This document shows, piece by piece, positions 55,935 to 62,535 of a stretch of 64,000 bases of DNA. A model generated the notes under the pieces. The model saw only the letters and a program-made list of their open reading frames with translations. It ran no database searches and had not been told where the DNA came from. Both the position numbers and the translations under genes were made by a program. This stretch comes from Lachnospiraceae bacterium. Lineage in GTDB: Bacteria > Bacillota > Clostridia > Lachnospirales > Lachnospiraceae. How positions within the stretch are numbered: position 1 is the first letter of the stretch; the number at the start of each line of letters is the position of its first letter. Where the stretch lies: NCBI GenBank assembly GCA_022652545.1, contig JALCRM010000002.1, forward strand, positions 124,001 to 188,000. Direction: 5' to 3'.

Positions 55935-56270
55935 ATGTCCAGATCGATCAAAAAGGGACCTTTTGCGGATGAGAGTCTGCTGAAGAAGATAGACGCAATG
56001 AACGCAGCGGGCAGCAAACAGGTGATCAAGACCTGGTCCCGCCGTTCCACCATTTTCCCGTCATTCGTAGGTCACACGATTGCAGTCCACGACGGCAGGA
56101 AACATGTTCCGGTGTATATCACGGAAGACATGGTCGGGCACAAGCTCGGCGAGTTCGTCCAGACGAGAACTTTCCGCGGACACAACGGCAACAACAAGAC
56201 CGAGACAAAGTCGGGACCGGCACCTGCAGCAGCACCGGCAGCCGCACCTGCGGCAGCCGCCAAGCAGTAA
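55935..56270 (+). CDS. rpsS: 30S ribosomal protein S19 with Ala/Pro tail
   Basis: A 111-residue S19; relatives are about 92. [19 protein letters not shown] and the [27 protein letters not shown] region are conserved. The extra end, about residues 88-111, reads [11 protein letters not shown] then Ala/Pro repeats closing in AAAAKQ. S19 lies in the head of the 30S next to S13. AGGAGG precedes ATG. Confidence 0.96.
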
Positions 56271-56305: not shown

Positions 56306-56896
56306 ATGGCTAACGGACATAGATCTCAAATCAAGAGAGAGAGAAACAGCAAGAAAGACAACAGGCCCTCTGCAAAGCTCACTTATGCGAGGATCCCTGT
56401 TCAGAAAGCCTGCATCGTTATGGATGCGATCCGCGGCAAGGATCTGACAGTTGCGGAAGGGCTTCTTACTTACAGCAGCAGATATGCTTCGTCAGTGATC
56501 CTCAAGCTGCTGAAATCCGCTGCGGCAAACGCAGAGAACAACAACGGTATGAACCAGGCCAATCTCTTCGTGGCAGAGTGCTACGCTGACAACGGCCCGA
56601 TCATGAAGAGGATACAGCCCAGGGCACAGGGCAGGGCGTACAGGATCCTCAAGAGAGAAAGCCACCTGACGATCGTCCTCGACGAGAAGAAGGGCACGGC
56701 GGAAGCAAAGGCTGAAGATACCGGAGCCGAAGCTAAGGAGACCGCAGGCAGCAAGGCCGAAAAAGCTGAAAAGAAACCAGCAGCGAAGAAGCCCGCAGCC
56801 AAGACGGCTGCAGCAAAGAAACCGGCTGCAAAGAAGACAGCGGCAAAGAAACCGGCAGAGAAGACCGAAAAAGCCGCGGATGCGGACAAAGAGTAA
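56306..56896 (+). CDS. rplV: 50S ribosomal protein L22 with histone-like C-terminal tail
   Basis: A 196-residue L22; relatives are about 110-130. The body spans residues 21-127: PSAKLTYARIPVQKACIVMDAI, and RIQPRAQGRAYRILKRESHLTIVL, which includes the tunnel hairpin. Residues 1-20 are a basic lead. Residues about 130-196 are a Lys/Ala/Pro/Glu tail with AAKKPAAKTAAAKKP-type repeats like the H1-type histone tails. The tail would project from the subunit surface near the tunnel exit. ATG 56306 has AAAGGAG upstream. Confidence 0.95.
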   Translation: MANGHRSQIKRERNSKKDNRPSAKLTYARIPVQKACIVMDAIRGKDLTVAEGLLTYSSRYASSVILKLLKSAAANAENNNGMNQANLFVAECYADNGPIMKRIQPRAQGRAYRILKRESHLTIVLDEKKGTAEAKAEDTGAEAKETAGSKAEKAEKKPAAKKPAAKTAAAKKPAAKKTAAKKPAEKTEKAADADKE

Positions 56897-56911: not shown

Positions 56912-57595
56912 ATGGGACAGAAAGTTAATCCACACGGCCTGAGAGTCGGCGTTATCAAGGACTGGGATTCCAGATGGTATGCCGAGAGCGATTTCTCCGA
57001 CCTGCTTGTGGAAGACTACAACATCAGAAAATATCTGAAAAAGAAACTGATGGCTTCGGGCGTTTCCAAGATCGAGATCGAGAGAACGACCGACAGAGTA
57101 AAGGCCACCGTCTATTCTGCAAAACCCGGCCTGATCATCGGCAAGGGCGGCGAAGAGATCGAGAAGACCAAGAACGAACTCTGCAAGATGACCGGCAAGA
57201 AGGTACAGCTGGACATCAAAGAGATCAAGCGCCCCGACAGAGATGCACAGCTTGTTGCGGAAAACATCGCACAGCAGCTGGAGCAGCGTGTTTCCTTCAG
57301 AAGGGCAATGAAGCAGGCTATGGGCAGGACGATGAAGTCCGGTGCGCTCGGGATCAAGGCATCCTGCGGCGGCCGTCTCGGCGGTGCCGATATCGCACGT
57401 ACCGAGACCTATGCTGACGGCACGATCCCGCTGCAGACACTGCGTGCAGACATTGATTACGGCTTTGCGGAAGCAGCCACCACATATGGCAGGGTCGGCG
57501 TGAAGGTCTGGATCTACAAGGGCGAAGTACTTCCCGTCAAGCCCGCTGACAAAGCAGCCGCCACCACTGCGGATACGGAAGGGAGCGAACAATAA
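56912..57595 (+). CDS. rpsC: 30S ribosomal protein S3
   Basis: A 227-residue S3. [24 protein letters not shown], the KH-domain loop [13 protein letters not shown] and the C-terminal [26 protein letters not shown] block are present. A short Ala/Thr-rich end (about 213-227) follows. S3 lies at the mRNA entry and has helicase activity with S4 and S5. The next gene starts in its stop codon. Confidence 0.97.
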
Positions 57596-58074
57596 TGTTA
57601 ATGCCGAAGAGAGTAAAACACCGTAAACAGTTCCGTGGCAACATGTCCGGCACGATCGTTCGCGGCACCACGGTGACTTACGGCAATTTTGGCCTTGTAT
57701 CCACGGAGCCCTGCTGGATCCGTTCCAACCAGATCGAGGCAGCCCGTGTCGCAATGAGCCGTTATGTAAAAAGAGGCGGCAAGATCTGGATCAAGATCTT
57801 CCCGGACAAGCCGGTAACCAAGAAGCCCGCTGAAGTCCGAATGGGCTCAGGAAAAGGTGCTGTAGAATTCTGGGTAGCTGTCGTAAAGCCCGGCAGAGTT
57901 ATGTTCGAGATCTCCGGAGTTCCTGATGAAGATGCCAAGGAAGCCCTTCGTCTTGCAGGAAACAAGCTTCCCTGCAAATGGAAGATCATAGCGAAGGAAA
58001 AGGCGCCGGAAAAGGCGCCGGTAAAGGCGCAGGGCAAGGCGCCGGCAGAAGGCGGTGCAGCAGATGAAAACTAA
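57595..58074 (+). CDS. rplP: 50S ribosomal protein L16 with Lys/Ala/Pro tail
   Basis: A 159-residue L16; relatives are about 137-145. [15 protein letters not shown] is the family start. [23 protein letters not shown] is the tRNA-side loop. The extra end, about residues 135-159, has [15 protein letters not shown] followed by a Gly/Ala/Glu stretch and is encoded by a short tandem repeat of AAGGCGCCGG units at 57995-58045. The last 11 bases overlap rpmC. Confidence 0.96.
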
Positions 58075-61619: not shown

Positions 61620-62129
61620 ATGAAGCGTTCAACGATTGATGCAAGTCAGATGGAACTCAACGATAAAGTCGTTACCATTAAGCGTGTTACGAAGGTCGTA
61701 AAGGGCGGTCGTAATATGCGTTTTACGGCTCTCGTAGTCGTAGGTGACGGCAACGGCCACGTAGGCGTAGGCCTCGGAAAAGCAACAGAAATCCCCGAAG
61801 CGATCCGCAAGGGCAAGGAAGATGCAGCCAAGAATCTTGTCAGCGTGGCACTCGATGAGAATGCAAGTATTTCTCATGATTACACGGGCAAGTTCGGTTC
61901 TGCCTCCGTCCTTCTCAAGAAATCCCCCGACGGCACCGGCATCATAGCCGGCGGCCCGGCACGTATGGTCTGCGAACTTGCGGGCATCAAGAATATACGT
62001 ACCAAGTCCCTCGGCTCCAACAACAAGCAGAATGTTGTCCTGGCGACGATCAACGGACTCGGACAGCTCAAGGTTCCGGAAGAAGTAGCTGCAAGACGCG
62101 GCAAGGATGTTGCGGATTTCAAGAACTGA
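61620..62129 (+). CDS. rpsE: 30S ribosomal protein S5
   Basis: A 169-residue S5, needed for decoding accuracy. [39 protein letters not shown] is the double-stranded RNA-binding domain, and [19 protein letters not shown] the C-terminal motif. GGAGGGAGAAGG is upstream. Confidence 0.97.
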
Positions 62130-62166
62130 GAGACAGGAGCGCGACATCAGCGCGAAGGAGGTTAAT

Positions 62167-62535
62167 ATGCCTGAGAATACCGAAGAAGTAAAGGCAGTGA
62201 AGGCAGAAGAGGAAAAGGCGGAGAAGGCTGTCAAAAAGGCCGCTCCCAAAAAGACTGCCAAGGCTGCGGATAGCACGAAGAAAGCAGCACCCAGGAAGGC
62301 TGCTCCGGCTGCGAAAGCTGCCAGGGCACCCAAGGCTGAAAAGTCAGCAGAAGCTTCCAAGATGCTCAAGATCACCCTGGTAAAGTCCACGATCGGTGCG
62401 GTTCCGAAGAACAAGGCCATCGTGAAGTCCATGGGCTTCAAGAAGCTTAACAGCAGCGTCATTCTTCCCGACAATGCGGCAACAAGAGGACAGATCCGTC
62501 TGATTGCTCCCATGCTGAAAGTCGAAGAGCTGTAA
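62167..62535 (+). CDS. rpmD: 50S ribosomal protein L30 with histone-like N-terminal extension
   Basis: A 122-residue protein; bacterial L30 is usually about 60. The L30 domain begins at Met66 (MLKITLVKSTIGAVPKNKAI) and ends with RGQIRLIAPMLKVEEL. Residues 1-65 are Lys/Ala/Glu/Pro-rich, with KKAAPKKTAKAADSTKKAA-type repeats that resemble H1-type histone tails and the L22 tail in this operon. AAGGAGG eight bases before ATG 62167 supports the long form; the internal ATG at 62362 has no good ribosome binding site. Confidence 0.92.
   Translation: MPENTEEVKAVKAEEEKAEKAVKKAAPKKTAKAADSTKKAAPRKAAPAAKAARAPKAEKSAEASKMLKITLVKSTIGAVPKNKAIVKSMGFKKLNSSVILPDNAATRGQIRLIAPMLKVEEL

What the first reader, a model, noticed from the sequence alone, without database searches (positions are those of the whole stretch)
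62167..62361. L30 carries a 65-residue histone-like N-terminal tail
The sequence shows a strong ribosome binding site ahead of a Lys/Ala/Pro-rich extension that doubles the length of L30. Bacterial L30 is normally a minimal protein of about 60 residues. The tail is basic and low in complexity like the H1-type histone or polyA-lysine tails seen in some DNA-binding proteins. It could bind rRNA or polyphosphate, or act away from the ribosome.
Basis: partly seen in the sequence, partly recalled or inferred. Interest (0 to 1): 0.75.

Follow-up and report, generated by a model that had tools for sequence, protein, structure and literature searches.

The report
Lysine-alanine tail on ribosomal protein L30
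One bacterium has added a long, floppy, lysine-rich arm to the small ribosomal protein L30, and similar arms to three neighbouring ribosomal proteins; it is real and unusual, but ribosomal proteins with such tails are already known.

Summary
ATG 62167 to stop 62535 encodes a 122-residue L30: 65 residues rich in Ala, Lys, Glu and Pro, then a normal 57-residue core. A strong Shine-Dalgarno site precedes ATG 62167 and none precedes the internal Met 62362. Among genomes examined the tail is private: 28 genus relatives read start 3-14 residues before the core, and no other L30 found in the genus has a comparable open frame (44 of 62 genomes gave an L30, this one included). It looks inserted into a short linker. 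It is not alone: S19, L22 and L16 upstream also carry Ala/Lys/Pro C-terminal extensions. L22 tails like it in two relatives are under purifying selection (dN/dS 0.23). HU, S16 and L17 have no such tail, so 'histone-like' is a likeness of composition only. Similar L30 N-tails occur in two Gammaproteobacteria and a Thermoanaerobaculales genome. Most likely it is a disordered polycationic arm touching rRNA; near-neutral expansion is the main rival. Bacterial r-protein tails and a helical uL30 N-extension (Borrelia) are in print, so this is a new variant of a known kind.

The parts
62155..62161 (+). Shine-Dalgarno AAGGAGG, 5 nt before ATG 62167
   Evidence: sequence
62167..62361 (+). N-terminal Ala/Lys/Glu/Pro-rich tail of L30 (65 aa)
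   Evidence: AlphaFold2 coil, 10-residue blocks of pLDDT 47-54 over residues 1-60
62362..62535 (+). L30 (rpmD) core, 57 aa, and stop
   Evidence: TIGR01308 and PF00327; pLDDT blocks of 92-93 for most of the core
62182..62228 (+). 24-nt imperfect tandem duplication inside the tail, two copies
   Evidence: 82% matches; one search also shows a 36-nt direct repeat, 72% identical, 62233-62268 / 62278-62313
56681..56893 (+). C-terminal Ala/Lys/Pro-rich tail of L22 (71 aa beyond residue 125)
56190..56267 (+). C-terminal Ala/Pro-rich extension of S19 (26 aa beyond residue 85, against 4-20 in 25 relatives)
58000..58071 (+). C-terminal [20 protein letters not shown] extension of L16 (24 aa beyond residue 135, against 6-10 in 28 relatives)

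Best explanation
The 65 residues are the genuine N-terminus of a ribosomal L30. They form a disordered, lysine-rich arm that expanded, partly by internal duplication, inside the short linker that relatives have before the L30 core. The arm is most likely a surface-exposed polycation tethered to the 50S subunit that makes loose, sequence-unspecific contacts with rRNA phosphates, helping rRNA fold during assembly or stabilising the mature particle. The L22 tail (and in a small way those of S19 and L16) would do the same elsewhere on the ribosome. Shown: the ORF and its start context, restriction to this genome among those examined, the parallel tails on S19, L22 and L16, predicted disorder, and purifying selection on the like L22 tail in two relatives. 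Inferred: that the tail is translated, exposed, contacts rRNA and helps assembly or stability.
For: ORF and Shine-Dalgarno. The L30 core is normal and folds as solved L30s do. Relatives have a 3-14 residue linker at the same place (starts chosen by me), including MAENK-MLKI in G057 and MPENTKKAADK-MLKI in G053, against MPEN-[tail]-SK-MLKI here. Four r-proteins of one gene cluster are extended; at the C-terminus the others examined are not. In 421,123 bases of this genome the strict screen found only L22 and L30. The like L22 tail of G021 and G052 has 16 synonymous and 15 non-synonymous differences, dN/dS 0.23, Fisher p 1.6e-4. AKP N-tails arose on L30 in unrelated bacteria (L049, L050, L052). 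Disordered repeats of Lys/Arg clusters bind and anneal RNA in yeast Loc1p (PMC11662656, passages seen).
Against: No direct evidence of translation, RNA binding or presence in ribosomes. The tail has only two matches to the RNA-binding 'PUN' pattern, no more than shuffles of itself (2 against a mean of 2.39). Its first 20 residues are acidic. No relative read has the L30 tail, so selection on the L30 tail itself cannot be measured. Its Ala codons lean to GCT (9 of 21, against 14 of 106 in seven r-protein genes of the window) and its GC3 is lower than the core's (0.52 against 0.72), which fits a recent expansion.
Confidence: 0.48

Rival explanations
1. Near-neutral expansion: the termini of S19, L22, L16 and L30 tolerate low-complexity growth, and duplication plus drift lengthened them in this lineage with no gain of function.
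For: Lengths vary widely in the genus (L22 C-overhang 4-76 in 27 relatives, with both acidic and basic tails). Internal duplications. The L30 tail is private to one species among those examined. PUN matches are no more than composition gives. Ala codons skewed to GCT within the tail.
Against: Purifying selection on the like L22 tail (dN/dS 0.23). Synonymous codons are mixed and Lys codons are as elsewhere (AAG 12 of 16, against 100 of 136). AKP tails also appear on L30 in distant bacteria. Only L22 and L30 in the sampled 421 kb pass the strict screen.
Confidence: 0.34
2. The tail is a counterpart of the Borrelia uL30 N-terminal extension, which fills the bL37 pocket formed by H39-H42, H89 and 5S rRNA near the peptidyl transferase centre.
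For: Same protein and terminus. The Borrelia extension is N-terminal and helical, and the authors report such extensions in other bacteria in a supplementary figure that I did not see (PMC10618245, abstract and passages seen; solved chain 8fmw_Ab is 100 aa). The first 25 residues here hold one Pro only and are rich in Glu and Lys.
Against: AlphaFold2 gives coil at pLDDT about 50 over the tail; four Pro fall in the rest. Parallel tails on S19, L22 and L16 are not explained.
Confidence: 0.1
3. The tail works away from the ribosome, binding DNA, polyphosphate or mRNA.
For: H1-like Lys/Ala/Pro composition. Fly eRpL22 has an N-terminal extension homologous to the histone H1 C-terminus (PMC11883427, one passage seen).
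Against: The HU match and S16 of this genome have no such tail. The other tailed proteins found are r-proteins of the same gene cluster. Nothing in the sequence points off the ribosome.
Confidence: 0.06

Closest known systems
Borrelia burgdorferi uL30 N-terminal extension (8FMW; PMC10618245)
   Same: bacterial L30 lengthened at its N-terminus (100-aa chain; core matched at 39-98)
   Different: Borrelia's is a bent helix in the bL37 pocket; this one is Pro-containing, low in complexity and predicted disordered
Terminal extensions of Mycobacterium smegmatis r-proteins (among them S3, S5, S16, L17, L22, L25; PMC3286452, passages and part of Table 1)
   Same: several r-proteins of one bacterium carry long terminal extensions, L22 among them
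   Different: L30 does not appear in the part of that table I saw; here the tailed set is S19, L22, L16 and L30, and S16 and L17 are not tailed
Eukaryotic uL30 (RPL7) with an N-terminal extension
   Same: extension at the same terminus; TIGR01310 aligns over residues 5-116 (E 0.0013), and solved eukaryote-sized uL30 chains align over the tail too
   Different: 18.3 bits against a cut-off of 254; the alignment over the tail probably rests on composition
AKP N-tails of L30 in Gammaproteobacteria (L049, L050) and Thermoanaerobaculales (L052)
   Same: Ala/Lys/Pro N-tail of about 50-105 aa on L30
   Different: more regular repeats (KKAAPKK), more basic (net +14 to +27); L22 in those genomes is not tailed by open-frame length (113, 113 and 121); inferred to be of independent origin
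Drosophila eRpL22 with an H1-like N-terminal extension (PMC11883427)
   Same: an H1-like tail on a ribosomal protein
   Different: a eukaryotic protein unrelated to L30

Membership tests
Bacterial ribosomal protein L30 (TIGR01308 / PF00327) | score over the curated cut-off | tested here: met
   58.1 bits against 44.65 and 56.5 against 23
Bacterial ribosomal protein L30 (TIGR01308 / PF00327) | place between S5 and L15 in the spc operon | tested here: met
   S5 61620-62129, L15 62604-63050 (both found beside L30 in nearly all relatives' loci)
Bacterial ribosomal protein L30 (TIGR01308 / PF00327) | L30 fold | tested here: met
   pLDDT 92-93 for most of the core; best PDB matches are L30 chains, best hit TMt 0.95
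Histone H1 / histone-like DNA-binding protein | DNA binding or a histone domain | not testable with these tools
   no histone or HU family among the four Pfam matches up to E 10; binding cannot be tested
Borrelia-type uL30 extension | helical extension filling the bL37 pocket | tested here: inconclusive
   AlphaFold2 shows no helix in the tail, at low confidence; pocket occupancy cannot be tested
PUN-motif RNA annealers (Loc1p-like) | at least five PUN motifs, three in close proximity | tested here: not met
   two non-overlapping matches by my own regular expression of the published consensus, shuffles 2.39; only the tail was counted
Eukaryotic uL30 (TIGR01310) | score over the cut-off | tested here: not met
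   18.3 against 254 bits

The most novel reading that the evidence does not exclude
This lineage is building a basic, disordered coat on its ribosome: four neighbouring r-protein genes (S19, L22, L16, L30) gained Ala/Lys/Pro tails together. The tails act jointly to condense ribosomes or pre-ribosomes with RNA, or to anchor them, in the way histone tails act on nucleosomes.
Probability: 0.1. Interest if true: 0.7.

Novelty: new variant of a known kind. Interest (0 to 1): 0.36.

Why it matters
If the arms are functional, they show how a minimal bacterial ribosome can gain eukaryote-like basic extensions within one genus, with tailed and untailed sister species available as a natural comparison. 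It also warns that an automated start-site call could cut such a tail off, since the core begins with its own Met.

Tried and rejected
Wrong start codon: rejected as the less likely reading, because the Shine-Dalgarno site fits 62167 and nothing fits 62362; relatives also start before the core at the matching place. Frameshift or assembly chimera: unlikely, since the tail is in frame, the contig is 399 kb and three other r-proteins show kindred tails; reads were not available. Shared DNA source for the L30 and L22 tails: only a 33-nt, 79% match (E 0.001 in a two-sequence comparison) between two repetitive coding stretches; not taken as evidence. Other copies of the tail in the genome: the L30 tail as query found only itself, the L22 tail itself and one weak match (E 0.2). 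As neither found the other, these searches are insensitive and show little. Tail-specific hypermutation in L22 of G021/G052: at first the core showed 0 differences in 128 codons and the tail 31, but the divergent tract runs on into S3, so it is a recombination mosaic. The simulation assumes random substitution and is weaker than the dN/dS. PUN motifs as a signature: no excess over shuffles. Reciprocal-best-hit overhang comparison of G000 and G051: too many antisense ORFs among the pairs; dropped. Literature: eight searches, read as listings; six papers opened for passages only. None of what I saw describes a lysine/alanine tail on bacterial L30; searches had no hits. The library is partial, so this is not proof of absence.

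Limits: 18 of 62 genus genomes gave no L30 match; 14 of these 18 are under 90% complete. The window's own genome is rated 81% complete. In one search, 364 of 397 family genomes matched but only the best-scoring rows (to E 3.6e-24) were printed, none with an open frame above 104; the window's own L30 was among the unprinted rows. In one search rows were dropped where the match stopped more than 25 residues short of the query's end; n runs from 2 (S10) to 30 (L14, L24). N-terminal extensions of r-proteins other than L30 were not compared. Of the two genus open frames of 102 I read one (G011). The genus is not named by the tools; the family Lachnospiraceae is inferred from record titles of relatives.

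Full report
What is there. Window 62167-62532 encodes a 122-residue protein with its stop at 62533-62535. Residues 67-121 are a standard bacterial L30. The first 65 residues hold 21 Ala, 16 Lys, 9 Glu and 5 Pro, net charge +8; the first 20 are net -3 and the other 45 net +11. AAGGAGG ends 5 nt before ATG 62167, and no such site precedes the internal Met 62362. AlphaFold2 on an 11-sequence alignment gives a confident L30 core (blocks of 92-93, the last 85) and a featureless tail (blocks of 47-54). The core matches solved L30 chains with TMt up to 0.96.

Relatives. In the genus, 44 of 62 genomes, this one included, gave an L30 match. The window's open frame is 148 residues; the next longest is 102 (G011 and G073). 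In G011, the one of the two I read, that is upstream frame without a start before a short linker. Of 30 relative regions read closely, 28 contain L30, starting 3-14 residues before the core by my choice of start. G057 reads MAENK-MLKI and G053 reads MPENTKKAADK-MLKI, so the tail sits as an insertion between a common start and the core. In a sample of the phylum, 121 of 139 genomes, this one included, matched; two others had open frames over 104. On reading, one (G541) has an Ala/Pro-rich C-terminal tail and the other (G607) no tail. In the family, 364 of 397 matched; of the rows printed, none exceeded 104.

Not L30 alone. Screening 338 window ORFs for Ala/Lys/Pro stretches returned four, S19, L22, L16 and L30, all ribosomal. 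Beyond a common core point, S19 has 26 residues here against 4-20 in 25 relatives, L22 71 against 4-76 in 27, and L16 24 against 6-10 in 28. The L16 extension keeps the genus-typical EGGA near its end, so it too looks inserted. The other r-proteins of the stretch differ from relatives by medians of at most 3 residues at the C-terminus, with ranges to -12 in S3 and -22 in S8; their N-termini were not compared. S13, S11, S4 and L17 downstream show no such terminal tail by eye. S16 and the HU match have none; S2 has an acidic C-terminus. With a stricter threshold over 421,123 bases of this genome only L22 and L30 passed, and over 400,000 bases of relative G051 one unrelated protein did.

History. 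A tree of 31 species from 17 r-proteins, some of them partial, puts the window's genome (G000) in a clade with G057, G065, G021/G052 and G006/G068/G059 (support 1.0; its exact place inside is less sure, 0.617 for the group next to it). L30 was read in all eight members and the tail is in G000 only. A basic Ala/Lys/Pro L22 tail is in G000 and in G021/G052 but not in G065, which is nearer to the latter; G059 has an acidic one of 46 residues. So such tails come and go. G021 and G052 allow a test on L22: 16 synonymous changes on 50 sites against 15 non-synonymous on 166, dN/dS 0.23, Fisher p 1.6e-4. The neighbouring S3 gives 0.02, so the tail is constrained but about ten times less than S3. The difference between the two genomes is a recombination tract that runs from the tail into S3, not mutation confined to the tail. 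Within the L30 tail there are an imperfect 24-nt tandem duplication and a 36-nt direct repeat, which suggests growth by duplication. Its Ala codons lean to GCT (9 of 21, against 14 of 106 in seven r-protein genes of the window) and its GC3 is 0.52 against 0.72 in the core; both fit a fairly recent origin.

Convergence. A scan of named genomes found L30s with Ala/Lys/Pro N-tails in two Gammaproteobacteria (107 and 118 aa) and a Thermoanaerobaculales genome (164 aa); a further gammaproteobacterial locus is partly masked. In the five distant genomes so reached L22 is not tailed by open-frame length (93-133, the 93 cut by a contig end). One of the five is an Actinomycetaceae genome in which L15 carries a long Ala/Lys/Pro N-terminal tail and L30 none.

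Mechanism. The most economical reading is a disordered polycationic arm acting on rRNA from the ribosome surface. Its support is the restriction to r-proteins in what was screened, convergence, and constraint on the like L22 tail. Its weakness is that nothing here measures RNA binding, and the tail shows no excess of the published RNA-annealing motif over shuffles. Near-neutral growth of a tolerated terminus remains a strong rival. I lowered the main reading from 0.50 to 0.48 and raised this rival from 0.32 to 0.34 when the codon skew was noted on re-checking.

Known or new. Long extensions on several r-proteins, L22 included, are known in Mycobacterium smegmatis (PMC3286452, passages seen). 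An N-terminal extension of bacterial uL30 is known in Borrelia and reported there for other bacteria (PMC10618245, abstract and passages seen). The analogy between r-protein tails and histone tails is itself the subject of a review (PMC11764897, passages seen). The solved L30 chains that I take to be bacterial (the output names no organism) are 55-65 aa, except the Borrelia chain of 100 aa and one of 105 aa labelled L33 plus L30; longer chains I take to be mitochondrial, eukaryotic or archaeal. What is new is the low-complexity Ala/Lys/Pro kind on L30 in this family, as far as my searches reach, and its appearance together with tails on S19, L22 and L16.

Noticed in passing
window 56306-56896: L22 carries a 71-residue Ala/Lys/Pro-rich C-terminal tail; among the relatives read, similar basic tails only in G021 and G052.
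   Followed up: yes
window 55935-56270 and 57595-58074: S19 and L16 carry shorter Ala/Pro and Ala/Lys/Pro C-terminal extensions.
   Followed up: yes
L162 / L163 (G021, G052): r-protein genes of two near relatives are a mosaic: no differences in the L22 core, many in the L22 tail and early S3, few after.
   Followed up: partly
L051:3281-4165: Actinomycetaceae L15 with a long Ala/Lys/Pro-rich N-terminal tail (294-residue ORF).
   Followed up: no
L022 (G028, same order) and L177 (G541): L30 with an Ala/Lys/Pro- or Ala/Pro-rich C-terminal tail instead of an N-terminal one.
   Followed up: no
G050: two L30 matches over the cut-off in one genome of the genus, on different contigs.
   Followed up: no
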